From assembly GCF_032884065.1 (NCBI RefSeq), contig NW_027066312.1, forward strand, positions 124,001-188,000: a DNA stretch of 64,000 bases, written 5' to 3'. Positions 3,959 through 58,995 of this stretch are shown in pieces (position 1 is the stretch's first letter; each line of letters starts with the position of its first letter). A program made the position numbers and the translations under genes. The stretch comes from Artemia franciscana (lineage: Eukaryota > Arthropoda > Branchiopoda > Anostraca > Artemiidae). The notes under the pieces were generated by a model, which was not told where the DNA came from, did no database searches, and was given only the letters and a program-made list of their open reading frames with translations.

Positions 3959-6575
3959 TGTCTGAATCAGTATCACTCGTGTCCTTCAATATTAATGGGA
4001 CGAAAAACAAGGACCTGACCATTGATGAACTGTACAGTAAGTTTGACATTGTATGCTTTCAGGAACATCTTTTGTCCGCAACGAGTGTTAATTTCCTGCG
4101 TCGCAGTTCCGCCCACTTTGTTTTCACAACAAATGCTAAATCTACTTTTGGAAGGCCTTCAGGGGGTTTAGCATGTATTATAAAACAAAAGCTCAGTTTT
4201 CTGTCTCCGTCATGCTATTTCTCTGAAGAACATTTATTGGCTATAAGACTTGGTAAAACCGTATTAATAAACACTTACCTGCCTCACGATGGGAAGAATA
4301 TGACATCGCTTAATAAATTCTCCAAAGCATGCTCTAGTTTGAAAACTCTCCTTCAAAGTATAAGCAAAAATGGGTACGAATTTATTATTATTGGAGATAT
4401 GAACGCTGATGTAAAACGTGATTCTGCTCGTACTGTGAACCTACTTGATTGTCTCCCTGATTACAGAATAATTGCGAAGGATCTACCTTTCTCGTATGTG
4501 CATAATTCCGGCAGCTTATCGGATATTGATCACGTGATTTGTTCCCCCTTCATTACATCTTCAACAGTGCATGTCCACGAAGATGAGCAAGATATTGATC
4601 ACCTTCCTTTATCGCTATGCTTTTCGATTGGAAAAGATAGTACTGACCAGGCTTGTGCTCCTGCTTCTAAATGGTTTGTGCGGAGTAATTGGAAAAATGT
4701 TATTTTGCCATTATATATTTCAACCCTGGTTCAACCCTGGCCATTCTCCTTGGTTCTTTACGTGTACCTTTTCATCTACTCCAGCTGAGTGTTAGTCCTA
4801 CTAAAAGTAATTATGATCTGAATCATTATTACAACCAAATCGTGTGGTGTTTAAAACGCGCTGAGGAGGTTGCTGTCCCTCAGGAGCGAGTGAGGAAAAG
4901 TACAAGGAAACCAATCTGGTCGTGTGACCCTGAGCTGAAAAGTGTGAAAAATAAAGCCAAATTGTGGCTGCGTATATGGGTTGCTAACGGTCGACCATTA
5001 GCTGGGAATGTGTTTGAAATAAAACAAAAAACTAAGCGTGAGTTTAAGAAATGTCTGCGATCGAGCCGTTACAAAGGGTTAGACTGTCCTACCAATAAGA
5101 AAGAATGGGACAAAGTGATTAATTCAGCTAAATTAAATAACTCGGCAAATCCTAATTGCCCCATTACGCCTTCCGGATGGTCTGACCACTATTCAGTTAT
5201 ATTTTCCAAAGTGAATTATGCAGTGCACGCGCTTTATTCGAAACTGCTTGATTCGGTTCTCCCGCCTTCCCTGACTCAGGCACAAGTTATTCCCGTTTCA
5301 GTTGACGCTGTAATTGCATCTGTTAAGAAATTGAAATCAAGTTCTCTTGATATTGACGGTATCAGTGCTTATCATCTAAAAATAAATTGCCCGTCTTTGT
5401 TTTTCCATTTACAGTTGTTTTTCCAAATGTGCCTTTGTTGTTCCCTCGTTCCTGACAGCTTTTTGTGTGGAACTGTCACTTCTGTACTTAAACGAGGTAA
5501 GACTCCTTTGGATTGTTCTTCTTACAGGCCTATCACGGTTGCTTGTAATTTTAGTAAAATCCTTGAATACATCCTACTTCCTTTCATAAGTATGAATGCT
5601 AATTTCGGGGAGAATCAGTTTGGTTTTCAGTCTGGCATCGGGTGCCAGCACGCTCACCGTGCTCTTGCTTTCCTTCTTAAAGATGCTTCGGCTAAAGGGT
5701 ATGGTCTTCATATTTGTGCTCTTGATCTTTCTAAGGCTTTCGATAGTGTTGTACATAGTCAGGCTCTTTACTCTCTTTATAGTCACGGTATTAACCTTTC
5801 AGTTATTTTTCTTCTAAAGTTTTGGTATAGTAATTCTTATCTTCGAATTAAAACTAATGGTGCCCTTTCATTTTCTAATGTTCTTGTTCGTCGGGGCGTA
5901 CGGCAGGGTGGAGTGTTATCTCCTAGTATTTTCAAATTTTGTATCTCTGGTATTCTTGAGAATATTTTTTCTATGTGTTTTGTTGGTTTGAGTGATATTT
6001 CTTACCTTGCTTATGCTGATGACATTCTTCTAATTAGCCGGTCTAAACTCAGTCTATCGGAGATGGTTCATAAAGTTTCTTCTTCTTTTACTAAAATCGG
6101 TCTTTCGCTTAATGTTGATAAATGTGAGTATCTTTCTTTCAATGTTCCCTCTTCTCCTAGGCCTCTAATTTTTCAAAATTTTTCTATCCCTCATGTAGAT
6201 TCGATCCGGTGGTAGGGTATTACACTTACAAAAAATCTTAAAACTCTTCGGGAGCGTGCTGTCTGGGATGCTAGAGTGAAAATCCAGATTGGTTACTCTA
6301 AAATTATTGCCAATCGAGGGAAATACAATCGTATTGCCCTTGGTAAGCTTTATTCTACTTTTTCCGATCATTCTGTTCTTTACCTTTCTGGGCTTTACCC
6401 TATATTTAAGAAAAAAGATATTAACGATATTCGATCCTCTTATTTCCGTTTCTGTAAATTTCTTCTCTATCTTCCTCTGTGGTATAGGAATCGAAAGATA
6501 ATGAAAAAGTTCCATCTTCCGAACATTACTGAGAAGCTGACTGATCTACACAAAAAGCTCTCAGAAACGGCGTAA
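3958..6575 (+). pseudogene. LINE-B ORF2, endonuclease plus reverse transcriptase, disabled
   Basis: The N-terminal domain is an APE-type endonuclease: SFNINGTKN, FQEHLL, IIGDMNAD, SDIDHV and DIDHLPLS are all present. The reverse transcriptase follows: SSYRPITVAC, QFGFQSGIGC, motif A LDLSKAFDSV, motif B GVRQGGVLSPS, motif C YADDILLIS, and a C-terminal tail ending near 6575 without RNase H. Two lesions are visible. First, an 11-bp tandem duplication (4719-4729 repeated at 4730-4740) shifts the frame between the two domains; the relative at ~55.97 kb has the segment once. Second, TAG at 6213-6215 interrupts the frame, which stays open on both sides. With so few lesions the copy is probably a recent insertion. 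The family role is nicking the target and copying the RNA in place. Confidence 0.93.
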
Positions 6576-7061: not shown

Positions 7062-8123
7062 TTAAATGAATAAAAACAAGTTTTTTAAATGAAAGTAAGG
7101 AGCAACATTAAAACTTAAAACGAACAGAAATTACTCCGTATATGATATATGAAAGGGGCTTTTCCTCCTCAACGCCTCGCTCTTTACGCTAAAATTTGAC
7201 TCTTTCTCTAAACTCTACTTTTTAAAACGGTAAGAAACTTTAGCGTAAAGAGCGGGGTGTTGAGGAGGAAAAGCCCCTTTCATATACGGAGTAATTTCTG
7301 TTCGTTTTAAGTTTTAATGTTGCTCCTTACTTTCATTTAAAAAACTTGTTTTTTTTCATTTAATTTCTGGGCGTTTTTGAATTAATGCAAGTTTTGATCT
7401 TGGCTCTCCGCACATAAGTAATTAAAAAAAAAATTCATATTAATTAATTGCAATTAATCGGAAGATTTTGAGAAAAAAGGAGTGAGGGAGGAGGCCTAGT
7501 TCCCCTCAATCTTTTGATTACTTTTGAAAACCTAGTTAATAGGTTTTTCGACTATGGTGAATAAAATGGCTATCTCAGAATTTTGATCTGGTGACTTTTG
7601 GGAAAAATGAGCGTGGGAGGGGGGCTGGGTGCCCTCCAATTTCTTGTCACTTAAAAAGAGCACTAGAACTTCTAATTTCCGTTAGAATGAGCCCTTTCGC
7701 GACATTCTAGGACCACTCTGTCGATACGATCACCCCTGGGAAAAAATAAACAAAAAAACAAATAAACACGCAACCACGATTTGTCTTCTGGCAAAATATG
7801 CGAAATTCCACATTTGTGTAGATAGGCGCTTGAAACTTCTACAATAAGGTTCTCTGATACGCTAAATCTGATGGTGTGATTTTCGTTAACATTGTATGAC
7901 TTTTAGGGGGTGTTTCCGCCTATTTTCTAAAATGAGGCAAATTTTCTCAGGCTCGTAACTTTTGATGGGTACAATTGATCTTGATGAAACTTATATATTT
8001 AAAATCAGCATTAAAATGCGATTCTTTTGATGTAACTATCGGTATCAAAATTTCATTTTTTAGAGTTTTGGTTACTATTGAGCCGGGTCGCTCCTTACTA
8101 GTTCGTTATCACAAACTGTTTGA
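7062..8123 (-). mobile_element. HL copy a: palindrome-bearing Helitron-like element
   Basis: The left end is a near-perfect inverted repeat: arms ~7074-7191 and ~7230-7353 around a ~40-bp spacer. The right end carries a small imperfect hairpin (near 8100-8120) before the terminal 'gtttga'. Read on the minus strand the element begins TC and ends TTTAA, and it sits between host A and T. No coding region is present. It lacks about 600 bp of the middle found in copies b and c. The palindrome makes this one of the strongest secondary structures in the window. Helitron affinity is an inference; the canonical CTRR end is not present. Confidence 0.7.
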
Positions 8124-8520
8124 TTTCGTATGAATCATGTTTTGGGGTCGTGTCCGTTTTAATCAACTATTCCCAGAATTTGAATATAATCTATAACTTA
8201 ATTTTGTCCATTAAGAGGGGCAGAGAGGAGGGGCTGCAATTTTTACAGTAAAAACTTGTAAAAAAAAAAAAAAAAAAAAAAGTCTGAAAATGATATAAAA
8301 CTTCACAAGAAAACAATTTGAAAATAATAACCGAATTTTTACTTTCGGCTATAATATAAAATTTCGTATAAATCAGGTTTTGGGGTCACGTCCATTTTAA
8401 TCAACTATTCCCAGAACTTGAATATAATCTATAACTTAATTTTGTCTCATTAAGAGGGGCAGAGAGGAGGGGCTACAATTTTTACAGTAAAAAGATAATA
8501 TTTGAGAAAAGTTTTGAATG
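8124..8520. repeat. Tandem duplication, ~238-bp unit
   Basis: The segment starting near 8126 ('cgtatgaatcatgttttggggtc') is repeated from near 8364, including the 'attaagaggggcagagaggaggggct' stretch. Units differ at scattered positions. No coding content. Confidence 0.65.
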
Positions 8521-13649: not shown

Positions 13650-14730
13650 ACTAGTGCTTGGGAGGTCAGCCTCTTGGACGAGTCTTATTAATTCTTCCTT
13701 CAAATGCAATTTTGGGTAGTAGGGCCGGGGACACAAACCGGATGTGTCCTAACCATCGAGTGGGATGCTTTCATCCCGATCTCTACATTCTAAGCGTTTT
13801 CCAAGATTTCTGGTTTCCCTCTCCAATTCTACCAATATCACCGGATACGGTCAAGATAAACATAAGAGCTCTGAAACACGAGATCCTTCTAAATATCAAA
13901 TTTCATTAAAATCTGATCACCCATTCGCAAGTCAAAAATGCATAATTTTTTCCATTTTTTTCCGAATTACCAACGCCCCCAAAGAGAGCCAATCCAGTAA
14001 GGTTATGTCAATCACGTATCTAGGACTTGTGCTTATTCTTCCCACCAGGTATCATCATGATCTCTCTAGGCTACTCTAAGCACTTTCCAAAATTTCCGGT
14101 TTCCACCTCCAACTCCCCCAATGTCACCGGATCCAGTCAGGATTTAAAACAAGAGCTCTGAGACACGAGGTCCTTCTAAATATCAAGTTTCATTAAGATC
14201 CAATCACCCGTTCGTAAGTAAAAATACCTCATTTTTTCTCATTTTCCGAATTATCAAATTAGGTCCCCCCACCAACTCCATCAAAGAGAGTGGATCCGTT
14301 CTGGTTATGTCAATCACGTATCTAGTACTTGTGGTTAATCTTCCCACTAAGTTTCATCCCGATCTCTCCACTCTAAGCGTTTTCCAAGATTTCTGGCCCC
14401 CACCCCAAATCCCCCCAATGATACTGGATCCGGTCAGGATTTAAAATAAGAGGTCTTAGTTACGAGGTACTTTAAAATATCAAATTTCATTAAGATCCAA
14501 TCACTCGTTTGTAAGTTAAAAATACCTTATTTTTTTAATTATTTGAATTAATCCTCCCCCAGCTCCCCCAAAGAGAGCAGATCGGTTCCAGTTATATCAA
14601 TCACATATCTAGGACTTGTGCTTATTTTTCCCACCAAGTTTCATTGATCTCTCCACTCTCAGCGTTTTGAAAGATTTCAGGTTTCCCCTTCAACTCCCCC
14701 CAATGTCACCGGATCCGGTCTCAACATTTC
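13650..14730 (-). repeat. Fragment of the ~290-bp-unit minisatellite element (family MS)
   Basis: At least three units with anchors 'tcaatcacgtatctag' near 14007, 14305 and 14595, spacing about 290-297 bp. Each unit contains 'aagcgttttccaagattt', a C-rich block, 'caccggatccggtc' and 'gagctctga'. These are reverse complements of the units at 15.9-17.5 kb. Neither terminal hairpin is present, so this is an internal fragment. The first ~100 bp (13650-13760) before the array are unassigned. Confidence 0.8.
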
Positions 14731-15793
14731 CCAAAGTTTAACCTTAATATTCTTAGCTTTTTAAAATGTACCTGGAATCAAACACCCCCTACTTTCCTGG
14801 TGATGAATCCTGCATTGAAAAAGAGCAAACTGCATAATTTACAATCCTTACCATGGGGGCTGTGAGGAACATTGCATCCATGATGATAAATTTGCGAGAC
14901 CTTTGGACAGTTTTGAACAAAATTGCCTTTTCAAAATTTTGATAAGTGATGAGAGAAGAAAGCATTTAGAAAGAGCGGTGGACTGGTAGCCCTCTGACAG
15001 TTCAATATCCCCTGGAATTGTCAGCTTAATACACTTTGCTCTTCCTCAGACATTGATGATATGTCTTTCTGACAATCAGCACGAACACATCGTACTTTAT
15101 TACGTTTGGCATCCCTCTTCAGAGCTGTGGGGGTTTATGTCATCCCAATAGGGTTTGTTAGTTCAAAATTGAGTATTTTGAACAGCATACCTAATTCAAA
15201 TTTTGATCAAATATTTTGGATAAGGGGCAACTAAAAAGGGCATGGAAGGGACTTGGCGGCCCTCAAAGCAATTTCCAGCATCCCCCTCAACATGTCCTGA
15301 GAGTTTCAAATCAACACCCTTCGTCATTCTTCAAATATTGTAGATCCTCCTTTTTGATAAAGTGGATGCACATACTGCCTTTTGAACTAATATGACATGC
15401 CCCTCAACATTGTTCTCAAACTGATAGTCGACAAATTGTTGTGACAGCTGAATCGTGAGTTTGCTGAATTCCGTTTTCTTTTGCTAATTTCAAAAACATT
15501 TTCTTAATGTTTAATCCACAATTATTGAACACCTGGTAGATTAAAGGAAATACAATCTTCTTTCCAAAAAATTACATCACCTCCCAAAAAACCCTCCTAT
15601 AGACAAAATTTTGCTATGAACTATGTACAAGTTTGAGGAATTGAAGATTAAAACAGTAGTGACCCCAAAATATGATACATAAGAAATTGTACATTACTGC
15701 ATATAGGGGGGGGGGGGGTGTAGTGGGCTATCACTTTAAATGAAAATACATCAATTTTCTTAATTGAAAGCAGGTGTGTCGAAAAGTTGATTT
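14731..15793. other. Intronic stretch without a gene
   Basis: No coding pattern. A G-run near 15706 begins a short segment ('ggctatcacttt', then 'ttgaaagcagg') related to the 132-bp tandem unit at 18.1-18.5 kb. Confidence 0.4.
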
Positions 15794-17768
15794 TTTATGG
15801 CACTTGGTATTAACCAAGTGACATATAGCAGTCGCCAATTCTGTCGGTCTGTCTGTCTGTCGGTCTGTCCCGGTTTTGCTACTTTAGGCACTTCCAGGTA
15901 AGCTAGGACGATGAAATTTGGCAAGCGTATCAGGGACCGCACCAGATTAAATTAGAAATAGTCGTTTTCCCGATTTGACCATCTGGGGGGGAGTGGGGGC
16001 CCGGTTAATTCGCAAAAAATAGAAAAAATGAAGTATTTTTAACTTATCAGCGGGTATTTGGATCTTAATGAAATTTCATGTTTGGAATGATATTGTGTCT
16101 TAGAGCTCTTATTTTAAATCCCGACCGGATCTGATGACATTGGGGGGAGTCGGAGGGGGAAAACCTAAAGTCCCGGTTTTGCTACTTTAGGCACTTCCAG
16201 GTAAGCTAGGACGATGAAATTTGGCAAGCGTATCAGGGACCGGACCAGATTAAATTAGAAATAGTCGTTTTCCCGATTTGACCATCTGGGGGGGGGGGGA
16301 GTAGGGGCCGGTTAATTCGGAAAAATAGAAAAAATGAAGTATTTTTAACTTATGAGCGGGTGATTGGATCTTAATGAAATTTGATGTTTGGAATGATATT
16401 GTGTCTCAGAGCTCTTATTTTAAATCCCGACTGGGTCTGATGACATTGGGGGGAGTTGGAGGGGGGAAACCTAAAATCTTGGAAAACACTTAGAGTAGAG
16501 GGATCGGGATGAAACTTGATGGGAAAAATAAGCGCAAGTCCTAGATACATGATTGACATAATCGGAACTTATTTGTTCTCTTTGGGGTAGTTGGGGGGGG
16601 AGTAAGTCTTAAAAATTAGAAAAATGAGGTATTTTCAACTTGCAAACGGGTGATCGGATCTCAATGAAATTTGATGTTTAGAAGGATATCGTGTCTTAGA
16701 GCTCTTATTTTAAATCCCGACCAGATCTTGTGATGGGGGCGGGGAGTTGGGAGGGGGAACCTAAAACTTGGAAAACACTTAGAGTGGAGGGATCGGGATG
16801 AAACATGGTGGGAAAAATAAACACAAGTCCTAGATAGATGATTGACATAAACGGAACGGATCCGCTCTCTTTTGGGTAGTTGGGGGGGGGGGGGGGTTAA
16901 TTCTGAAAAATTAGAAAAAATGAGGTATTTTTAACTTACGAACGGGTGATTGGATCTCCATGAAATTTGATTTTTAGAAGGATATCGTGGCTCAAAGCTC
17001 TTATTTTAAATCCTGACCGGATCTGGTGACATTGGGGGAAGTTTGGGGTGGGGAGACCTAAAATGATGGGAAACGCTTAGATTGGAGGGATTGGGATGAA
17101 ACTTGGTTGGAAAAATAAGCAAAAGTCTTGCATACGTAATTTACATAATTGGAACGGATCCGCTCAATTGCGGGGGGGGGGGGGGTAATTCTGAAAAATA
17201 AGAAAAATAACGTATTTTTAACTTACGAAGGAGTGATCGGATCTTCATGAAACTTCATATTTAGAAGGACCTCGTAACTCTGATATCTTATTTTAAATCT
17301 CAACCGGATCAAACGTAATTGGGGGGGGGGGGCAGTTGGGGGGACCGGAAATCTTAGAAAATACTTAAAGCGGTGAGATCAGGATGAAACTGGATGGGAA
17401 GAATAGAAACCTGTCTAAGATACGTGACTGACATAACTGGACCGGATCTGCTCTCTTTGGTGGAATTGGGAGGGGGGAGGTAATTTTGAAAATTGAGGTA
17501 TTTGTAACTTACGAAAGGGTGACCAGATCTTAATGAAATTTGATATTTAGAAGGATCTTGTGCTATAAAGTTTAACTTTAGGTTCTGACCTTCTCACAAG
17601 TGCCAAATGAGCTCTTGGCTCTTGGCTCTTCCGACCTCGTACCATATGAGCTCTCGGCTCTTCTGACCTCGTCCAAATGAGCTCTTGGCTCTTCCGACCT
17701 CGTACCATATGAGCTCTCGGCTCTTCCGACCTCGTCACAAGTGCCATATGAGCTCTTAGCTCTTGTTT
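15794..17768 (+). mobile_element. MS copy 1: minisatellite-carrying element with terminal hairpins
   Basis: The left end is a hairpin, 'tatggcacttggt'-'atta'-'accaagtgacata' (13-bp stem with one mismatch). Then come a TCTGTC-type microsatellite (~15840-15868), a unique block and an array of about six units. Anchors 'gtatttttaactta' lie at 16033, 16339, 16629, 16925, 17212 and 17498 (spacing 286-306 bp). The right end, 17587-17762, is a short-unit array of 'gagctcttggctcttccgac' type, closed by a hairpin GAGCT-CTT-AGCTC at 17750-17762. No ORF is shared between units. Hairpins at both ends around a tandem core resemble the non-autonomous Helentron-type elements of molluscs and insects; that is an inference. 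Confidence 0.75.
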
Positions 17769-22818: not shown

Positions 22819-24530
22819 TTAAATAAAAAAAAACAATTTTTTTCTGAAAGTAAGGAGCAACATTAAAACTTAAAACTAGCAGATATTACTCCGTGTATGA
22901 AAGGGGCTGTTCCTCCCTCAACTTCCCACTCTTTACACTAAAATTTTACTCTTACTCTCAATTCTACTTTATTAAACAGTAAGTAACTTAAACATAAAGA
23001 GCAGGATGTTGAGGGAGGAACAGCCCCTTTCATACACAGAGTAATTTCTGTTTGTTTTAAGTTTTAATGTTGCTCCTTACTTTCAGTTTAAAAAAAACTT
23101 GTTTTTTTTAATTTAATTTCTGAACATTTTTGAATTAATGCATGTTTTTATTTTGGCTCTCTGCAGATGAATAATTAAAACGAAATTTGCATATTATTTT
23201 TTTTTTGCTAAATGGCTTTCTCCTAGTTTTGATGAGATGATTTAGAGAAAAGGGGTGGGAGAGGAGGCCTAGTTGCCCTCCAATTTTTTGGTTACTTAAA
23301 AAGGCAACTATAATTTTTAATTTTTAATGAACATTTTTATTAGTAAAAAATATACATAACTTACAAATTAACTTACATAACAAACTTCTATATTTGTATA
23401 TTTTTATTATGTATATGAGGGGGTTTGCCCCCTCATTAATACCTCACTTTTTACACTAAAGCTTTAATTTTGTCTTAATTCTTTAAGATTGACCCATGAA
23501 TCACAAAGGCTGTAGAACAAATAGTTGAAATTACTAAAAAATACTTTAGCATAAAGAGCAAGCTATTTAGGAAGAGATGGATCCCCCAAATGCATAGTAA
23601 TCTCTGTTCATTTTAAGTTTTAATGCTGGTCCTTATGTTTAGCTGAAAAAACTTTTTCATATTTATTTTTTCATTGTTTTTTTTTACAATAATGCTAGAA
23701 AATCCTGCACCCACTTCATTGAATTTCTCTTCTCCCATGACAAATTCCTCCAAGGGAAATCATCCCATGTAGCCCTCTCCCCTCAACCCCCCCCCCCCCT
23801 CCAAACAAATAAATCATCCTGAAAAGGTCTGTACACTTCCTAATAATCATTACTGTATATAAATGCTGGTCAAAGTTTGTAACTTGCAGCCCCCCCCCTG
23901 GGGACTGTGGGGGAGTAAGTCAGCCCCAAAGACATAGTTATTATGTTTTTTGACTATGTTGAACAAGATGGCTATCTCAAAATTTTGATCTGTTGGCTTT
24001 GGGGGGAAAATGAGCATGGAAGGGGGCCTAGGTGCCCTCTAATTTTTTTGGTCACTTAAAAAGGCCACTAGAACTTTTAATTTTCACTAGAATGAGCCCT
24101 CCCTCAAGAATTCTAGGACCACTTGGTCAGTACAATCACCCCTCGAGAAAAAAAATAAACAAATAAACATGTACCCATGATTGGTCTTCTGGCAAAAAAT
24201 ATTAAGTTTGATATTTTTGTAGATAAGAGCTTGAAACTTCTACAGTAGGGTTCTCTGATATGCAGAATGCAATGGTGTGATTTTGTTAAGATTGTATGAC
24301 TTTTAGTGGGTGTTTCCCCCTATTTTCCAAAACAACGCAAATTTTCTCAGGCTCATAACTCTTAATGAGTAAGAATAAATTTGATAAAAACTTGTATATT
24401 TAAAATTTTCATAAAAACTCAATTCTTTTGATAGGCTATATCTATTGGTATCAAAATTCTGTTTTTAGAGTTTTATTTACTATTGAGCTGGGTTGCTCCT
24501 TACTAAAGTTTGTTACCATGAACTGTTTGA
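22819..24530 (-). mobile_element. HL copy b: the longest uninterrupted HL element
   Basis: Starts 'ttaaataaaaaa', then a palindrome with arms ~22850-22960 and ~22985-23095. Next comes a middle region with a second partly inverted module near 23400-23610 ('gtatatgagggggtttgcc' ... 'agtaatctctgttc'). It ends 'gaactgtttga' at 24530, preceded by a subterminal hairpin partly held by wobble pairs (24509-24527). The flanks close to 'tacca|ttcata'. At 1712 bp it matches copy c after removal of c's nested insertion (1641 bp). CpG sites seen in other copies are often TG/CA here, consistent with an older, methylated copy. Confidence 0.7.
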
Positions 24531-39099: not shown

Positions 39100-41080
39100 T
39101 ATCTCAGATACAGCTTTTTGTATTAAGTTGAAATTTTTTGGGCATGCTGATAGGAATCTTCAACCAGCCAAAATGCAATATTTGCAAACTACCTACAAAC
39201 AACTGCAAAAAAAAGCCAATGAAGTCAAAATAATAATAAAATGGAAACAACTTTGAAGAGCTATCAGATACACAGCTATACACCACGTAACTAATTCTAT
39301 GGAGCTTCAAAATGAATAAACTCAGTATATTAAAGTTAAAAATAAGGTTTAATTAATGTTTGGGAAGAAAGAAAAGCTAAATTGGCTCAGCAATTATTTT
39401 TTTGCCCTGAATTAATACCTTTTTAATAGTGTTGGCCCATGAGTTTCCTTTAGATAAGCCTTACAACTAAGGCTAGAGAAGAGAAGAATGAGGATAGAGA
39501 AGAAGAAAAATAGATAGAGAAAAGGAGGATAGGGAAGAAGTGGACCTGCTGTACCAGGGAAGGTTCTAAGAGTGGTTGTAATATTATCAGAGAGTAGTAA
39601 TATGAATAGAATGTTAGAGCACTAAAATTCTTCAAACCTAAATATCTTCTCTAGTGCTCAAATCTTGACATTTCCCCCCTTTTTAAGTACTGTATCTCCC
39701 AGTTCTAGTTTTCACTCTGATATAAATTACACTTACTATTATATTAAGATGATTTAGCAAGAATTCTGTATTCAAGGTGGGGATGGCTAAGAGCAGTATA
39801 AAGTCTGGGTTATTGTGGGTTTTCTAGAAGCGGTGGTTATTTTAACAAGACTTTAAGATTTATTAGCTTTTACAAGTTGTACTTGTGGTACTTGACTTGA
39901 TTGTCCATTTTAACTGCAAACCTCAGTCTTGGCATCCCCTTGTCTAAGAATTCCACCCAGATGTCTTTGACAAGAATTTGGTAGGCTAATGATAGTGAGG
40001 TTATTTGGACTTAAGTTTCACATTTTAAGGGGTCAAATTCAAACATCCGGGGTTTAGCTTACTGAGACAACAAATCAAAACAAGGCTAGAGTGTATAATG
40101 AGCCAAGGAATAAATAACTTCGGAGTTTTCACTACACATGGTTAAATAATTCTGGATTTTGGTTTGGACAAACATTAAACAGCCCGTCATACGAAACTCT
40201 AACTAAGGAGTAAGTTTTGCGCACAGTAACCAAAGCTATAAAAGAAAAAAAAAGTGAAATTACAGTAACAATAACATACAAAGATGTGGCTGTTTAACAT
40301 GAATCAAAATAAATAAAATTCTTCAAGTTTTCAAAGTTACTCATCAAATGCTATCAGCCCGAGAAAAGTTGCACAATTTTGAAAAGCCAGAGAATACCTT
40401 CAACAAGTGGATTAATATTAATGAAAGGTCTCAAGCCCCTATGTACAAAAATGCGAAATCTTATGTTTCTCAGAGACATTTTACTTGTGGACCCAGAGAC
40501 ATTTGTACTTATTACAACATTGAAAATAAAATGAAAATTGCAGTGAATCCAGACAAGGATTTACCTATTGGGCCACTATGCCCTGCGGCTTTCACTATTC
40601 CTGAATTTCACTATCCACTTCTTTCCGTTATCTCATGTTTTAAAAATTTATTATTTTAGACTTCTTACGTAATGTAATGTATATAATGTAATAAAATGTA
40701 ATATAATATAATGTAACATATAATGCAATGTAAATGTTAACACCAAGTTTGCATGTGTAAGTATATTTCTGATGTCATGCCTGAACACAGAAAAGGCTTG
40801 AATTATTTTCACAAAAATTGGACCAAAGGATCACCCCTCTCTCTCGTGACAGTTAAAAAATTGTGCCCCAGTAAATGCTTTTTACTATTTTTGACCCACT
40901 ACATTCCAAGAAAGATTACTCATATCCCCAAAAGTCATTCGCATCATGCGTGCCCTCGTTTTGCCCCACATTCAAAGAAAGGTGTATGCTTCTTTGCCGT
41001 TTTTTGTTGCCTCAGGGGGATGATTATGTCGAATCAGTCATCATAGAATATTGGAAAAGTGCTCATTGAAATGAAAATTG
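39100..41080. other. No gene recognised; AT-rich simple repeat at 40660-40735
   Basis: Contains a purine-rich block (39470-39545), an unrecognised 103-codon ORF at 40348-40659, and a 'taatgtaatgtatataatgt' simple repeat just after it. Confidence 0.35.
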
Positions 41081-41290
41081 AAAGTCGGAAAAACTTCTAA
41101 TTTTCGTCAGAATGAGCCCTCTCGTTATAATCTAGGACCACTGGGTCGGTACGATAACCCCTGGAAAAAAGTAAATAAAAATAAATAAACAAGCATCCGT
41201 GATCAGTCTTGTGGCAAAAAATGCAAAAGTCCATATTTTTGTAGATAGGAGCTTCAACCTTCATCTGCAGGGTTCTTTTTTAAGTAGGAA
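41080..41290 (-). mobile_element. HL fragment e
   Basis: Matches the right-central part of HL copies: 'cagaatgagccctctcg', 'taggaccactgggtcg', 'aaaataaataaacaagcatc' and 'tttttgtagataggagctt'. Both ends are missing. Confidence 0.7.
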
Positions 41291-42235: not shown

Positions 42236-42594
42236 TCAGCACTGTATAAGAAAGGTGATCAGAGTGAGTATGGTAATTATCAAGGGATTAGTCTGGTCTC
42301 AGTAGGTAGCAAATCACTTAGTAATATGATACTTGTTAGACTGAAAGATGCTGTAGACAAAGTTATAAGAGAAGATCAGTGCGGTTCTAGAAAAGATAGA
42401 GAATATGTTGACCAAAATTTCCCTCTAAGGCTAATAATTGAGAAGCGCCTGAGTTATCAAACGCCTTTGTTCCTCAGTTTTACAGATTTTGAGCAAGTGT
42501 TCGATTTTGTTGATAGAAGATCTTTAGCGAAGTTCTTATCCTTGTATGGTATACCAGACAAATATATTAAAGTGATTAGTGCTATGTAAGAGAA
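42236..42594 (+). pseudogene. RTE-like LINE, left part (split by nested insertions)
   Basis: The frame gives EYGNYQGISLVSVGSKSL, MILVRLKDAVDKVIREDQCG, then PLRLIIEKRLSYQTPLFLSF, the motif A region DFEQVFDFVDRRSLAK (first D replaced in context) and LYGIPDKYIKVISAM. It stops abruptly at 42594, where the HL element begins. The reading resumes at 47084 as NTAV after a junction codon, so these are two halves of one copy. In the family the protein has an endonuclease and reverse transcriptase and spreads by target-primed reverse transcription. Confidence 0.9.
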
Positions 42595-43166
42595 TTAAAT
42601 AAAAAAAACAAGTTTTTTTAAATGAAAGTAAGGAGCAACATTAAAACTTAAAGCGAACAGAAATTACTCCGTATATGAAAGGGGCTTTTCCTCCTCAACG
42701 CCCCGCTCTTTACGCGAAAGTTTGACTCTTTCTCTTAACTGTATTTTTAAAACAGTAAAAAACTTTAGCGTAAAGAGCGGGGCGTTGAGAAAGAAAAGCC
42801 CTTTCGTATACGGAGTAATTTCTGTTCGTTTTAAGTTTTAATGTTGCTCCTTACTTTCATTTAAAAAAAACTTGTTTTTTTTATCTAATTTCTGGACGTT
42901 TTTGAATTAATGCATGTTTTGATCTTGGCTCTCCGCACATAAATAATTAAAACGAAATTTGCATGTTAATTAATTGCAATTAATCGGAAGATTTTGAGAA
43001 AAAAGGAGCAAGGGAGGAGGCCTAGTTGCCCTCCAAGTTTTTGATCACTTAAAAAAGCAACTAGAACTTTTAATTTTTTACAAACGTTTTCATTGGTAAA
43101 AAATATACATAACTTACGAATTAACTTACGCAACGAACTTTTATATTTATATGTTTTTATTGCGTA
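42595..43166 (-). mobile_element. HL copy c, left part with terminal palindrome
   Basis: Begins 'ttaaataaaaaaaaca' immediately after host A42594. The palindrome arms are ~42610-42722 and ~42760-42875, nearly perfect, with spacer at 42723-42760. The rest reads like copy b up to 'tttttattgcgta', where the Helitron nest is inserted. The remainder of the same copy continues at 46015. Confidence 0.85.
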
Positions 43167-43313
43167 CTAGCTGTTGGAGTGGCGCTTCGCGCCACCCCAC
43201 TCCTAGTTGGTGGGGGCGCTTCGCGCCCCCCAAGCCCCCCCCGCGCGCGTAAGTCGTTACGCGCCATATTAGTTACGCGCCATTGTAGTTGTGTCCCTGT
43301 GTCCCACCTGTGA

Positions 43314-43424
<111 letters not shown>

Positions 43425-43436
43425 TTTAACTACGTA

Positions 43437-43621
43437 AAACTTGCGAATATACAACATTTCTTCGATGTCCCATTGACTGTGCATATAAATAGATTGTCAG
43501 GTTTACCGACTCTTGAACATGCAACATAAAATTGTCCATGGGAAAAATAATCCGTATTCAGATCTATACCTGATTATTCTAATAACTGCCCTTGAGCTTT
43601 GTTGATGGTGATTGCTAATCG
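43437..43621 (-). pseudogene. Helitron helicase C-terminus (PIF1-like)
   Basis: The minus-strand reading gives RLAITINKAQGQLLE, the PIF1/RecD-type motif V. After a stop it gives GIDLNTDYFSHGQ and [15 protein letters not shown], motif VI with the arginine finger. One in-frame stop and an extra A near the end break it. Everything upstream of motif V is lost and replaced by the ~30-bp minisatellite at 43625. The full protein (Rep nuclease plus helicase) drives rolling-circle transposition; this copy cannot. Confidence 0.85.
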
Positions 43622-43624
43622 AAC

Positions 43625-43885
43625 GTTCCCTGTGTCCCCGTCGTCATTTATATATCCCCCTGTGCCCCCCGGCATCCCCCTTGTAGTTGTGTCCCTGTGT
43701 CCCGGTCGTCATTTATATTCCCAGTATCTCGTTCGTCATTTGTGTCCCAGTCTGTCATTTCTCTTTGAGCGTCCCGGTCGTCATTTATATCTCCCGGTCG
43801 TTATTTGTGTCCCAGTGTCCCAGTCTGTAATTTCTCTTTGAGTGTCCTGGTCGTCATTTATATTCCCTGTGTCCCGGTTTTTAGT
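43625..43885. repeat. Minisatellite 'cccggtcgtcatttatattccctgtgt'
   Basis: Degenerate units of about 25-35 bp containing 'tcccggtcgtcattt'. The same repeat in reverse orientation fills 44535-44865, and a few units lie at 45413-45465. It is internal to the Helitrons and directly abuts the truncated helicase frame in both orientations. Confidence 0.8.
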
Positions 43886-44160
43886 TTTCTTTTTCTCCTT
43901 TATTTTTCAGTTTTTTTCTTTTTTTCTTTTTTTTTTCTTTTTCAGTTTTTAGTTTTTTTATTAGTTTTTAGTTTTTTTTCTTTTTAGTTTTTTTGTAGTT
44001 TTTACCTTTTTTTTTAGTTTTTTTCTTTTTTAGTTTCTAGTTTTTTACCTTTTTTTTATTTTTTTTTAGTTTTTTAGCTTTTTTAGTTTTTTTAGTATTT
44101 TCTTTTTAGTTTTTTTGTAGTTTTTACCTTTTTTAGTTTTTTTTCTTCTTTTGTATTAAT
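43886..44160 (-). repeat. T-rich low-complexity tract ('ttttagttttt' units)
   Basis: Read on the minus strand it is an A-rich (ACTAAAAA)-like tract directly after the tRNA-like box B. That is where the tail of a SINE would stand. A second copy lies at 45553-45765 with almost the same sequence. Confidence 0.75.
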
Positions 44161-44164
44161 GCTA

Positions 44165-44242
44165 AAGCCAAGGTTCGAACCTGGAACCTCTCGGACCTGG
44201 AACCTGGAACATAACGCTTTACCAACTCAGCTACTTCGGCTT
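44165..44242 (-). other. tRNA-like sequence with Pol III A and B boxes, copy 1
   Basis: On the minus strand: 'agccgaag', then 'tagctgagttgg' (A box), and later 'ggttcgaacc' (perfect B box) followed by 'ttggctt', which pairs with the 5' end apart from one extra G. The part between the D arm and the T arm is a duplicated 'ccaggttccagg', with no proper anticodon arm. It is therefore a tRNA-derived promoter-like unit, not a working tRNA gene. Confidence 0.65.
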
Positions 44243-44367
44243 GAATACATTCGTTTTTGAATTGGTATATGATGAAATAATTCAGACGTCATATAATGAC
44301 GTCAGTCGACACACAAACATGACGTCAGTCGACACACAGACACACAGACAACTTATCTATTCTATCT

Positions 44368-45404
<1,037 letters not shown>

Positions 45405-45771
45405 TAGATAGATGTCCCGGTGTCCCGGTCGTCATTTGTGTCCCGACGTCCCGGTCTGTAATTTCGTCAGTCGACAAACATGACGTCAGTCGACACACAA
45501 ACATGACGTCACTCGACACACAGACACACAGACAACTTATTTTTATATATATTTTTTAGTTTTTTATTAGTTTTTAGTTTTTTTTTCTTTTTAGTTTTTT
45601 TTGTAGTTTTTACCTTTTTTTTTAGTTTTGTTCTTTTTTAGCTTTTAGTTTTTTACCTTTTTTTTATTTTTTTTTAGTTTTTTAGCTTTTTTAGTTTTTT
45701 TAGTATTTTCTTTTTAGTTTTTTTGTAGTTTTTATCTTTTTTAGTTTTTTTCTTCTTTTGTATTAATGCTA

Positions 45772-45833
45772 AAGCCAAGGTTCGAACCTGGAACCTGGAA
45801 CATAACGCTTTACCAACTCAGCTACTTCGGCTT
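45772..45833 (-). other. tRNA-like sequence with Pol III A and B boxes, copy 2
   Basis: Same as copy 1 but without the inserted 'ggtccgagaggttcc' block: A box 'tagctgagttgg' and B box 'ggttcgaacc'. It lies downstream of the Helitron 5' leader (45834-45945) and upstream of an A-rich tract, so leader, tRNA-like unit and A-rich tract form a repeated module. Confidence 0.65.
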
Positions 45834-45941
45834 GAATACATTCGTTTTTGAATTGGTATATGATGAAATAATTCAGACGTCATATAATGACGTCAGTCGA
45901 CACACAAACATGACGTCACTCGACACACAAACACAGACAAC

Positions 45942-45948
<7 letters not shown>

Positions 45949-46012
<64 letters not shown>
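45949..46012. repeat. (TA)n microsatellite within the Helitron 5' terminus
   Basis: Thirty-two TA units between 'acaacttattttta' and the terminal GA of the outer Helitron. Compare 'tctatatatataaaaataag' at 44369, where the same position has only four. Confidence 0.9.
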
Positions 46013-46014
<2 letters not shown>

Positions 46015-47083
46015 TATGAGGGTGTTCAACCCTTGTTGATACCTCGCTCTTTACTCTAAAGCTTAGATTTATGATTGATCTCTGAATCACAATGGCCTTA
46101 GAATAAATAGTTGAAATTAGTAAAAATACTTTAGCGTAAAGAGTGAGGTATAACGAGGAGGTAAACCTGTCATATGCGTAATAATTTTTGTTCGTTTTAA
46201 TGCTGCTCCTTAATTTCAGTAGAAAAAACTTTTCATATTGTTTTTTCATTGTTTTTTCAAATAATGCTAGCAAATCCTGCGCCCCCTTCATTGAAATTAT
46301 CTTCCCCCATGGAAAGTTTCTCCATGGAAATATCCTCCCACGTAACCCCCCTCCTCAATCCCCCCTAAACCAAAAAATCCCCCTGAAAACGTCTGTACAC
46401 TTCCCAGTAACCATTACTATATGTAAACACAGGTCAAAGTTTGTAACTTGCAGCCCCTCCCACGGGGACTGCAGGGGAGTAAGTCGTCCCTAAAGACATA
46501 GTTATTAGGTTATTCGACTATGGTGAATAAAATGGTTGTGTCAGAATTTTGATCCGGTGACTTTTGGGAAAAAATGAGCGTGGAAGGGGGCCTAGGCGCC
46601 CTCCAATTTTTGGTCACCTAAAAAGACACTAGAACTTTTAATTTCCGTTAGAATGAGCCCTCTCGCGACATTCTAGGACCACTCAGTCGATACGATCACC
46701 CCTGGGAAAAAAAACAACAACAAATAAACACGCATCCATGATCTGTCTTCTGGCAAAAAACGTGAAATTCCACATTTTTGTAGATAGGAGCTTGAAACTT
46801 GTACAACAGGGTTCTCTGATACGCTGAATCTAATGATGGGATTCGTTAAGATTCTATGACTTTTACGGGGTGTTTCCCCCTATTTTCTAAAATGAGGCAA
46901 ATTTTCTCAGGCTTGTAACTTTTAATGGGTATAACTGATCTTGATGAAACTTATATATTTAAAATCAGCATTAAAATGCGATTTTTTTGATGTAACTATT
47001 GTAACTATTTCCGTTTTTTAGAGTTTCGGTTACTATTGAATAGGGTCGCACCTTACTACAGTTCGTTACCACGAACTGTTTGA
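46015..47083 (-). mobile_element. HL copy c, right part with terminal hairpin
   Basis: Resumes 'tatgagggtg' where the left part stopped at 43166. It contains the second partly inverted module, and ends in a perfect 9-bp hairpin ACAGTTCGT-TACC-ACGAACTGT near 47058-47079, followed by 'ttga'. Host T follows at 47084. Left and right parts total 1641 bp. Confidence 0.85.
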
Positions 47084-50395: not shown

Positions 50396-52024
50396 AAGAA
50401 CAAGACCTAAGAGGTCATATGGCACTTGTGACGAGGCAAGAAGAGCTAAGAGCCAAGAGCTCATATGGCATGAGCTCTAAAAAAATTCCAAGAATCAATA
50501 GATTGATTTAAAAGGAAAATCAGAGGCTTAATGGAGCGAATCCAGTACGGTTACGTCAATCACGTTTCTAGGACATTTGCTTATTCTATCCACCAAGCTT
50601 TATCCCGATTCCTTCACTCTAAGCGTTTTCCAAGATTTCCGATTTCCCCTTCCAACTCCCCCCCAATGTCAACAGATCTGGTCGGAATTGGAAATAAGAG
50701 CTCTGAGACATGGATTCCTTCTAAATATCAAATTTCATCAAGATCCGGTCACCCGTTCTTAAGTTAAAAATACCTCAATTTTTCTATTTTTTCCAAATTA
50801 ACACCCCCCAGCTCCTCCAAAGTGAACGGATCCGTTCCAATTATGCCAATCACGTATCTAGAACTTGTGCTTATTCTTCCCATTAAGTTTCATCCCGATC
50901 TCTCCACTCTAAGCGTTTTCCAAGATTTTTGTTTCCCTCCTCCAACCCCTATATCCCCTGACCCAATTCGAGTCGAAAATGGAGCATCTGAGACATAAGA
51001 TCCTTCTATATATCAAGTTTCATTAAGATCCGATCACCTATTCGTAAGATAAAAATACCCCAATTTTCACGTTTTCCAAGAATTCCGGTTTCCCCCTCCA
51101 ACTTCCCCCAATGTCACAGGATCTGGTCAGAATCTAAAATAAGAGCTTTAAAGCACAAGATCCTTCTAAATATCAAATTTCATTAAAATCTGGACAGCGG
51201 TTCGTAAGTTACAAATACCTCATTTTTCGAATTACCCCCCCCCCCCAATCTACCAAAGAGAGCAGATCTGGCCCGGTTATGTCAGTCACGTATCTTAGAC
51301 TTGGTTTTATTCTTCCCATCCAGTTTCATCCTGATCTCTCCGCTTTAAGTATTTTCTAAGATTTCCGGCCCCCCAACTGCCCCCCCACCAATGACGCTGG
51401 ATCCGGTTGAGATTTAAAATAAGAGATCTGAGTTACGAGGTCCTTCTAAATATGAAGTTTCATGAAGTTCCGATCACTCCTTGGTAAGTTAAAAATACGT
51501 CACTTTTCTAATTTTTCAGAATTAAACCTTCCCCCTCCCCAATAGAGCGAATCCGTTTCAATTATTTCAATCACGTATCTAAGACTTCTGCTTATTCTTC
51601 CTACCAAGTTTCATCCGATCCCTCCACTCTAAGTGTTTTCCAAGATATTAGGTTTCCCCCTCCCTACTCCCCCCCCCAATGTCACCAGATCCGGTCAGGA
51701 TTTAAAATAAGAGCTCTGAGACACGATATTCTTCCAAACATCAAATTTCATTCAGATCTGATCAACCGTTCGTAATTACGTATACTTCATTTTTCTTTTT
51801 TTTCCGAATTAACCGGCCCCCCACTCCCCCCCCAGGTGATCAAATCGGGAAAATGGCTGATTCTAATTTAATCTGGTCCGGTCCCTGATACGCCTACCAA
51901 ATTTCGTCGTCCTAGCTTACTTGGAAGTGCCTAAAGTAGCAAAACCGGGACCGACAGACAGACAGATAGACCGACAGAATTTGTGATTGCTATATATGTC
52001 ACTTGGTTAATACCAAGTACCATA
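50396..52024 (-). mobile_element. MS copy 2: minisatellite-carrying element, inverted
   Basis: Reverse orientation to MS copy 1. The left end has the hairpin GACCT-AAG-AGGTC (50404-50416), which corresponds to GAGCT...AGCTC in copy 1 with both sides changed, keeping the pairing. Array anchors 'tcaatcacgt' near 50551, 50839, 51278 and 51560 (one partial unit between the second and third). Then the unique block 'aagtagcaaaaccggg', a GACA microsatellite, and the hairpin 'gtcacttggt'-'taat'-'accaagtac' at 51998-52022. Confidence 0.75.
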
Positions 52025-57721: not shown

Positions 57722-58995
57722 AAAGAGCGAGGTGTTGAGGAGGGGACAACCCCTTTCATGTACGGAGTAATTTCTGTTCGTTTTAAGTTTTAAAGTCGCT
57801 CCTTAGTTGCAGTAAAAAAAAATGTTTTTTATTTAATTTCTGAAGGTTTTTGAATTAATACATGTTTTGATTTTAACTCACCGAACATGAATATTTAAAA
57901 CACAATTTGCATATTAATATTTGTTTTGGCTAAATGGCTTCCTCATAGTTTTGATCGGACGATTTTGAAAAAAAGGGGTGGGGGAGGAGGCCTAGTTGCC
58001 CTCCGATTTTTGGTTACTTAAAAATACAACTAGAACTTTTTATTTTTTACGAACGTTTTTATTGGTAATAATTATACGTAACTTACGAATTAACTAACGT
58101 AGCGAATTTCTGTATTTGTATATTTTTATTACGTATATGAGGGGGTTAGCCCCCTCGTCAATACCTCGCTCTTTACACTAAAGTTTGAATTTCATCCCAA
58201 TTCTTTGAGAATGACCCCTGAATCACAAAGGTCGTAGAATAAATAGTTGAAATTACAAAAAATACTTTGGTGTAAAGATCAAGGTATTGTGGATGAGACG
58301 TACCCCCTCATATGCATAATATTTTTTGTTCGTTTTAAGTTTTAATCCTGCTCCTTACTTCCAGTTGAAATTTTCTTTTTATATTTATTTTCTCATTGTT
58401 TTTTTTTTAATAATACTAGAAAATCCTGCGCCCCCTTCATGTAAATTCTCTTCCCTCATGATAAATTTCTCCATGGAAAGATCCTCCAATGTAACCCCCT
58501 CCTCCAACCCATCCCCACCCCAACTCGAAAAAGTCCCTCTAAAAACGTCTGTACACTCCTCTATAGCCATTACTATATGTAAACATAATTTCCTTTAGAA
58601 TGAGCCCGTGACATTCTAGGACCACTGGGTCGATACGATCACCCCCGAAAAAAAACACGTATCTGTCTTATGGAAAAAAAACACAATGAAATTCCACATT
58701 TTTGTAGATAAGAGCTTGAAACTTCTGTAGCAGGGTTGTCAGATACGCTGAATCTGATGGTGTGGTTTTCGTTAAGATTCTATGACTTTAAGGGGGTGTT
58801 TCCCCCTCTTTTCCAAAATAAAGCAAATTTTCTCATGGATAAGACTAAACTTGATGAAACTTATATATTTAAAATCAGCATTAAAATTCGACTCTTTTAA
58901 TGTAACTATTGGTATCAAAATTCCGTTTTTTAGAGTTTCGGTTACTATTGAACCGGGTCGCTCCTTACTACAGTTCGTTACCACGAACTGTTTGA
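57722..58995 (-). mobile_element. HL copy d, truncated inside the palindrome
   Basis: Starts in the right arm of the palindrome ('gagcgaggtgttgaggagg') and so lacks the outer terminus. It continues through the undisturbed site 'acgtatatgaggg' (58131-58143) that corresponds to the Helitron insertion point in copy c, and ends with the perfect hairpin ACAGTTCGT-TACC-ACGAACTGT and 'ttga' at 58995. Confidence 0.8.

What the first reader, a model, noticed from the sequence alone, without database searches (positions are those of the whole stretch)
7062..8123. HL family: a Helitron-like element with an oversized terminal hairpin
Two independent empty sites (the duplicate flank at 8351-8370 and the RTE reading frame at 42594/47084) show insertion exactly between A and T without added bases. 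On the minus strand the element starts TC, has a subterminal hairpin ACAGTTCGT-TACC-ACGAACTGT, and ends in a palindrome with arms of about 118 bp followed by ~12 nt and TTTAA. Helitrons insert in AT, start with TC and end hairpin-CTRR. Here the 3' hairpin is ten times larger and CTRR is replaced by TTAA. Five copies in 64 kb show the same plan. A 2-bp AT duplication would give the same sequence and cannot be excluded.
Basis: partly seen in the sequence, partly recalled or inferred. Interest (0 to 1): 0.85.

Follow-up and report, generated by a model that had tools for sequence, protein, structure and literature searches.

The report
Helitron-like element with giant palindromic end
A very abundant, protein-less jumping DNA in a genome that matches the brine shrimp starts like a rolling-circle transposon but ends in a roughly 300-base palindrome whose two halves tend to change together over evolution, which is unusual but looks like a variant of a known kind.

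Summary
Window 7062-8123 (minus strand) is a real insertion unit: it starts TCAA + short hairpin and ends in a ~300-nt palindrome and TTTAA. Its family is huge: the exact 39-nt 5' terminus occurs 16,730 times in the window's own 1.27-Gb genome (reversed-pattern control 0), which two contig lengths tie to Artemia franciscana. A precedes TC in 30 of 41 5' junctions; T follows in 25 of 27 3' ends. Four empty sites show clean insertion; one, in a T run, excludes obligatory AT duplication. A 13-bp inverted repeat near both ends recalls Helitron2/Helentron, the A|T preference canonical Helitrons. New: the palindrome arms tend to evolve in concert (43 identical two-arm changes against ~4 expected naively, 34 copies), at lineage level, not at every jump. 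The palindrome is not invariable: of ten copies picked by 5' end, four have it, three lack most or all of the inner arm, three are interrupted. No autonomous partner was found, but only 30 of 7436 Rep candidates were examined. Best reading: a non-autonomous Helitron-like element with a new, oversized 3' end. Mobility is inferred.

The parts
7062..8123 (-). copy 1 of the HL element (1062 bp, deletion derivative of the ~1.7-kb form)
   Evidence: both ends, empty site in flank duplicate
8100..8123 (-). 5' terminus TCAA plus short hairpin (decayed in this copy)
8087..8099 (-). 5' subterminal repeat AGTAAGGAGCGAC
7094..7106 (-). 3' partner of the subterminal repeat (12 of 13), about 32 nt from the 3' end
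7062..7363 (-). 3'-terminal palindrome, about 300 nt, ending TTTAA next to host T
8267..8493 (+). tandem duplicate of the target region without the element (empty site)
22819..24530 (-). copy 2, long form with palindrome and second internal hairpin around 23420-23670
42595..47083 (-). copy 3, inserted in an RTE-type reverse-transcriptase frame; interrupted by a canonical Helitron at 43167-46014
57722..58995 (-). copy 4, intact 5' end, outer palindrome arm missing (breaks near the loop)
41090..41277 (-). internal fragment of the family
40175..40471 (+). old, diverged relative of the 5' half

Best explanation
HL is a non-autonomous Helitron-like (rolling-circle) element. Shown: a conserved TC 5' end with a short hairpin, a 13-bp inverted repeat inside both ends of many copies, a 3' end TTTAA formed by one arm of a ~300-nt palindrome in most copies examined, insertion before T (preferably A|T) without target duplication of 2 bp or more, and at least 16,730 exact 5' termini in the genome. 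Inferred: a Rep/helicase supplied by another element nicks at TC, unwinds one strand, stops at the 3' palindrome acting as terminator, and joins the strand to an (A/T)T target. The palindrome's inner arm is an inverted copy of the 3' end that still carries the A|TT junction, so it may have arisen by self-insertion or template switching. The arms are then kept alike by correction when they pair (hairpin repair, template switching or gene conversion); this acts over lineages and not at every jump.
For: Ends and flanks: 39 of 41 5' ends start TC, 30 of 41 have A before it (P 2e-7 against flank composition; a few of the 41 are duplicated loci), 25 of 27 3' ends are followed by T. Four empty sites join exactly (copy 1, copy 3, L020, L028). 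Palindrome passing the length and end criteria in 29 of 43 places (39 loci chosen by similarity to the inner arm + 4 window copies; three more set aside as duplicates), and in 4 of 10 loci chosen by 5' end. Subterminal 13-mer: 16 of 31 copies with 0-1 mismatch; shuffles reach the observed match in 2, 116 and 4 of 1000 for three copies. Concert: 23 identical two-arm changes against 1.3 expected naively in 29 copies, 43 against 4.1 in 34; the series L079, L082, L027 adds changes in both arms; the AU test rejects grouping by arm, p 0.003, and 0.013 with the A/T-rich end trimmed. 16,730 exact 5' ends genome-wide, reversed-pattern control 0.
Against: No Rep/helicase with HL ends found (30 of 7436 candidates looked at, 1.5-kb flanks). 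The 3' end is TTAA, not CTRR; A before TC fails in 11 of 41. The 13-bp repeat is only modestly beyond chance per copy (one copy 116 of 1000) and the copies are related. The two-arm changes are concentrated: 18 of the 23 in L027, copy 2 and L031, and L079, L082 and L027 share inherited changes, so they are not independent events; the naive expectation ignores relatedness. Trees of arms give 81-98% support for the copy-2 pair, 46-76% for the copy-3 pair and do not clearly unite the copy-1 pair. Mean arm identity is 0.914 within copies against 0.899 for outer-inner pairs across copies, only 3 of 29 outer arms have their own inner arm as best match, and L011, L012, L034, L042 share arm mismatches. 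Eight ~400-bp copies without inner arm at different sites suggest that the palindrome may be dispensable.
Confidence: 0.75

Rival explanations
1. A cut-and-paste (DDE) transposon with a very short target duplication (a single T) whose palindromic end is a fold-back terminal repeat.
For: A single T is shared by both sides at the clean junctions, so a 1-bp T duplication cannot be told from none; a long palindrome resembles fold-back MITEs; TCAAACA / TTAAATA agree at 5 of 7 positions (my reading).
Against: No terminal inverted repeat between the two ends was seen beyond that; a 2-bp AT duplication is excluded as a rule by 11 of 41 junctions and by the TTT|TT insertion in L020. The DDE class was not tested by any protein search.
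Confidence: 0.12
2. A derivative mobilised by the canonical Helitron machinery that is abundant and young in this genome, with TTAA standing in for CTRR and the palindrome replacing the short hairpin.
For: TC start and A|T preference are canonical; 7436 Rep candidates, the 30 fetched at least 95% identical to one of them; a canonical TC...CTAG element sits inside copy 3 at exactly A|T. In Helraiser the 3' end is not essential (PMC4778049, passages).
Against: HL end models and the whole-element model hit 0 of the 30 Rep loci, whose flanks of 1.5 kb may not reach the ends; the nested canonical element's ends do not resemble HL's; HL has a 5' hairpin and subterminal repeats that canonical Helitrons lack.
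Confidence: 0.25
3. The arm similarity reflects selection for base pairing (compensatory change) and not copying of one arm from the other.
For: Hairpin pairing may matter for termination; single-arm changes are common (82 outer-only, 53 inner-only).
Against: Shared changes include insertions (extra G in L027, L079, L082; an extra C in copy 2) and many sites within one lineage, with L027 arms 100% identical while carrying 10 changes; repeated identical double hits are unlikely.
Confidence: 0.2
4. The palindrome is a separate palindromic MITE that happened to land at the element's edge.
For: Both of its outer ends are TTTAA followed by T.
Against: The outer boundary is the insertion boundary in copies 1 and 3, L020 and L028 by empty sites and in many copies at unrelated sites.
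Confidence: 0.07

Closest known systems
Helitron2 (PMC3627910, passages seen)
   Same: short hairpin at the 5' end, short asymmetric inverted repeats, 3' hairpin, no target duplication as a rule
   Different: here the repeat lies beside and not within the 5' hairpin; target is A|T or TT|T, not TTTT|T/C; 3' palindrome ~300 nt
Helentron-derived HINE / DINE-1 (PMC4067079, passages and section 6)
   Same: non-autonomous, ~13-bp subterminal inverted repeats, 3' stem-loop, no target modification, high copy number
   Different: A preferred before the T; giant palindrome; no partner seen; the OTU domain carried by some Helentrons gave only two pieces on one contig here
Canonical Helitron / Helraiser (PMC4778049, passages)
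   Same: TC start, A|T preference, 3' hairpin
   Different: no CTRR, 5' hairpin present, 3' palindrome over ten times longer than the 19-bp one of Helraiser
Non-canonical FoHeli of Fusarium (PMC5148889, passages)
   Same: FoHeli1/2: TCAG start with 5' hairpin, inverted repeat tens of bp from the 3' end, insertion before T; self-insertion composites proposed
   Different: RepHel-encoding members known there; no giant palindrome in the passages seen

Membership tests
Canonical Helitron (Helitron1) | 5' TC | tested here: met
   39 of 41 ends (the two others TT; three ends without a readable start were left out)
Canonical Helitron (Helitron1) | 3' CTRR | tested here: not met
   27 distinct 3' ends read TTTAA or a one-base variant, 3 more are altered
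Canonical Helitron (Helitron1) | short hairpin 10-12 nt before the 3' end | tested here: not met
   ~300-nt palindrome reaching the end, plus a small A/T stem-loop
Canonical Helitron (Helitron1) | insertion between A and T without duplication | tested here: inconclusive
   A in 30 of 41, T in 25 of 27; four empty sites, three A|T and one T|T
Helitron2 / Helentron (HLE2) | hairpin at the 5' end | tested here: met
   9-bp stem starting at nt 5, intact in copies 3 and 4, decayed in copies 1 and 2; exact in 16,730 genome matches
Helitron2 / Helentron (HLE2) | short asymmetric or subterminal inverted repeats | tested here: met
   AGTAAGGAGCGAC/GT(T/C)GCTCCTTACT, 16 of 31 with at most 1 mismatch; modest per-copy significance
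Helitron2 / Helentron (HLE2) | TT-type target | tested here: not met
   T before TC in 8 of 41, A in 30, G in 3
Helitron2 / Helentron (HLE2) | autonomous partner with Rep/helicase (and endonuclease in Helentrons) | tested here: inconclusive
   30 of 7436 Rep candidates examined, none with HL ends within 1.5 kb
TIR (DDE) transposon | terminal inverted repeats at both ends | tested here: not met
   the two ends differ
TIR (DDE) transposon | target-site duplication | tested here: inconclusive
   2-bp AT excluded at L020; a 1-bp T duplication cannot be told from none
TIR (DDE) transposon | transposase of the DDE class with these ends | not tested
   no such search was made

The most novel reading that the evidence does not exclude
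A rolling-circle transposon whose 3' end is a self-correcting palindrome: during the single-stranded stage the end folds on itself and one arm is repaired or rebuilt from the other, so that the terminator renews itself in a way that recalls hairpin-ended viral genomes.
Probability: 0.15. Interest if true: 0.85.

Novelty: new variant of a known kind. Interest (0 to 1): 0.55.

Why it matters
The Helitron 3' hairpin acts as a termination signal in Helraiser (PMC4778049, passages). A family with more than ten thousand copies carrying a 300-nt version, with full, decayed and one-armed forms side by side, makes it possible to ask from sequence alone how much hairpin a rolling-circle element needs, and whether a long single-stranded hairpin leaves a copying signature in its arms. 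It may also account for part of the large Helitron share (8.81%) reported for Artemia franciscana (PMC11492255, passages); whether that annotation includes this family was not checked.

Tried and rejected
Looked for relatives outside the genome: plasmids and phages by distant blastn (no match), viral contigs by four exact patterns (none), genome contigs by one 20-mer (one match in a bacterial MAG, no further similarity to the window; taken as chance). Considered per-jump re-copying of one arm from the other: rejected as a rule, because only 3 of 29 outer arms match their own inner arm best and a few copies share arm mismatches. The concert test on the three window copies was too small, so it was repeated with 29 and 34 copies. 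In one search the site patterns summed over all pairs were 1030 by copy, 352 by arm, 328 crossed, but these include the ill-aligned A/T-rich end. L011 looked like an empty-site case, but the match is its own 3' end and a duplicate of the same insertion (L029); dropped. L019, L041 and L044 were dropped from the arm counts as duplicates sharing host flanks with L018, L040 and L016; ten further loci of 39 failed the length or end criteria (L013, L017, L023, L024, L025, L029, L033, L035, L036, L046). The L027 palindrome belongs to a second element in that locus. Three 5' ends without a readable start were left out of the 41, and the L016/L044 duplicates remain in it. The OTU search for Helentron relatives gave two pieces 11 kb apart on one contig (8 candidates scored). 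Whether the eight ~400-bp one-armed copies moved as such or lost the arm in place is open: their inner junctions differ by up to ~20 nt, the 3' end model matches in all eight but the terminus itself is altered in two (L090, L092), and the search that found seven of them was seeded with the eighth. The last printed number (46 mismatches) comes from a misregistered comparison and is not used. Literature: the listings of searches showed no title or abstract on a Helitron-like element with a palindrome of this size; the library holds open-licence papers only, and Repbase cannot be searched here.

Full report
What is there. The unit at 7062-8123 reads on the minus strand: host A, TCAA, a short hairpin, AGTAAGGAGCGAC, about 720 nt of sequence without long open frames in this window's list, then a palindrome of about 300 nt that ends TTTAA next to a host T. 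The palindrome folds as single-stranded DNA at -132.8 kcal/mol against a shuffle mean of -26.6 (0 of 100 shuffles as good). The target region is tandemly duplicated and the second copy (8267-8493) is empty; the join is exact.

Copies in the window. Besides the named copy there are full copies at 22819-24530 and 42595-47083, one at 57722-58995 that breaks off near the palindrome loop and so lacks the outer arm, an internal fragment at 41090-41277 and an old relative of the 5' half at 40175-40471. The long form is about 1.7 kb and has a second, smaller hairpin in its middle; the flanks of the two hairpins resemble each other, so the long form looks like two related modules in tandem (my reading). 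The named copy is a deletion derivative lacking the middle hairpin. The copy at 42595-47083 carries a canonical Helitron (43167-46014, TC...CTAG, at A|T, with the corresponding sites of copies 2 and 4 as empty sites; my reading): a built-in control showing what a canonical element looks like in this genome.

The genome. Six searches of the window's own assembly were answered: three by DNA, two by family and one by pattern. It has 1,270,528,402 bases in 6468 contigs. Contigs of 67,337,973 and 45,252,357 bases equal the longest scaffold and the N50 given for the A. franciscana assembly of PMC11492255 (passages); scaffold number and total differ slightly (6486; 1,270,721,445 in the paper), and one held contig (C1, 71,465,782) is longer than the paper's longest, so the held version is not identical to the one in the paper. 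I take the organism to be Artemia franciscana on this basis.

Family size and ends. The exact 39-nt 5' terminus occurs 8342 + 8388 times; the same pattern read backwards occurs 0 times. The 39 inner-arm loci and four window copies hold 10 exact copies of it, against 41 readable 5' ends, so the family may hold roughly 70,000 5' ends; this is a crude scaling from a non-random sample. Of 41 ends 39 start TC; the base before is A in 30, T in 8, G in 3 (P 2e-7 for A). Of 27 distinct 3' ends with a readable terminus the next base is T in 25 and A in 2; three more had altered termini. Among ten further copies picked by their 5' end, nine have A and one G before TC.

Empty sites. Besides the named copy: copy 3 against the paralogous RTE in L023; L028 inserted in another member of its own family (84% identical empty relative); L020 inserted in another member at CATTT|TTGTAG, where many empty relatives exist. 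All four join without added bases; the T run at L020 shows that A is not needed and that a 2-bp AT duplication is not the rule. A 1-bp T duplication cannot be told from none.

Palindrome. In 39 loci chosen by similarity to the inner arm plus four window copies, 29 palindromes passed the length and end criteria after three duplicates were set aside. Of ten loci chosen by the 5' end (10 of the 40 places listed besides the window's own), four have a palindrome (L079, L081, L082, and a shortened one in L087), three have a 3' end but lack most or all of the inner arm (L080, L085, L088), and three are interrupted before the 3' end: L083 by other sequence, L086 by a canonical Helitron, L084 by a second HL element in opposite orientation that has an old palindrome of its own. 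A search with the junction of L085 found seven more ~400-bp copies of that kind, with different flanks; their inner junctions differ, so independent deletion in place is as likely as a mobile one-armed subfamily. The inner arm ends TTTAA followed by TT, just like a real insertion end, which fits self-insertion of one element into another, as proposed for FoHeli composites (PMC5148889, passages).

Arms evolve together. For the three window copies no site groups arms by position (outer with outer), while 5, 6 and 8 sites in the three pairs group them by copy (four of the five between copies 1 and 3 come from one indel in an A run), and the AU test rejects grouping by arm (p 0.003; 0.013 with the A/T-rich end removed), although the unconstrained trees do not clearly unite the two arms of copy 1 and support the copy-3 pair only at 46-76%. 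With 29 palindromes, 23 changes from the majority sequence are identical in both arms where chance would naively give about 1.3; 82 are in the outer arm only and 53 in the inner only (the inner arm was the search query, which biases this last ratio). Eighteen of the 23 are in L027, copy 2 and L031; five are single changes in L014, L030, L032, L037 and L045. With five more palindromes the count is 43 against about 4.1. L079, L082 and L027 share two-arm changes and L082 and L027 carry further ones, again in both arms; L027's arms are identical. Shared ancestry means that these are fewer events than changes. Against per-jump copying: mean arm identity within copies is 0.914 against 0.899 for outer-inner pairs across copies, only 3 of 29 outer arms have their own partner as best match, and some copies share arm mismatches. 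So correction acts, but slowly: lineage-level, consistent with template switching (PMC8794818, abstract), hairpin repair or conversion.

Which machinery. No protein was recognised in HL; its frames were not searched one by one. The Helitron Rep family in this genome has 7436 first-look candidates; the 150 scored all lie at 197-205 bits, and the 30 fetched are at least 95% identical to one of them; none has HL ends within the flanks held (1.5 kb, less at one contig end), and 15 of 30 share sequence with the canonical element nested in copy 3. A divergent Helitron2-type Rep would score lower and would not have been listed. The OTU domain found in some Helentrons appears only as two pieces on one contig, perhaps one cellular gene. 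The partner is therefore unknown.

Verdict. What it works like: a rolling-circle element, most likely (0.75). What it is a member of: not a canonical Helitron (CTRR and hairpin tests failed); closest to the Helitron2/Helentron plan, but the TT-target test failed as a rule and no partner is known, so I file it as Helitron-like, an unplaced variant.

Noticed in passing
43167-46014: Canonical Helitron (TC...CTAG, A|T target) nested in copy 3, itself with internal Helitron-like ends and long AT runs; L086 carries a similar element at the same site of the internal hairpin.
   Followed up: partly
L049-L078: A very abundant, young Helitron Rep family: 7436 first-look candidates, 30 fetched Rep domains at least 95% identical to one of them, several with long open frames.
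   Followed up: partly
13769-17475 and 50514-51995: Arrays of ~290-bp tandem repeats in both orientations, shared between distant places in the window; one lies near a CACTTGGTATTAACCAAGTG inverted repeat and TCTGTCTG tracts.
   Followed up: no
219-1415 and 4689-6212: Retrotransposon frames with reverse transcriptase domains.
   Followed up: no
40303-40656: Short open frame with a weak THAP-domain match below Pfam's cut-off, overlapping the old HL relative.
   Followed up: no
57722: Copy 4 stops near the palindrome loop, as if the outer arm and its flank were lost by a break at the hairpin tip.
   Followed up: partly
L084: One HL element inserted in opposite orientation into the 5' part of another, a possible step of the self-insertion route to a palindrome.
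   Followed up: partly
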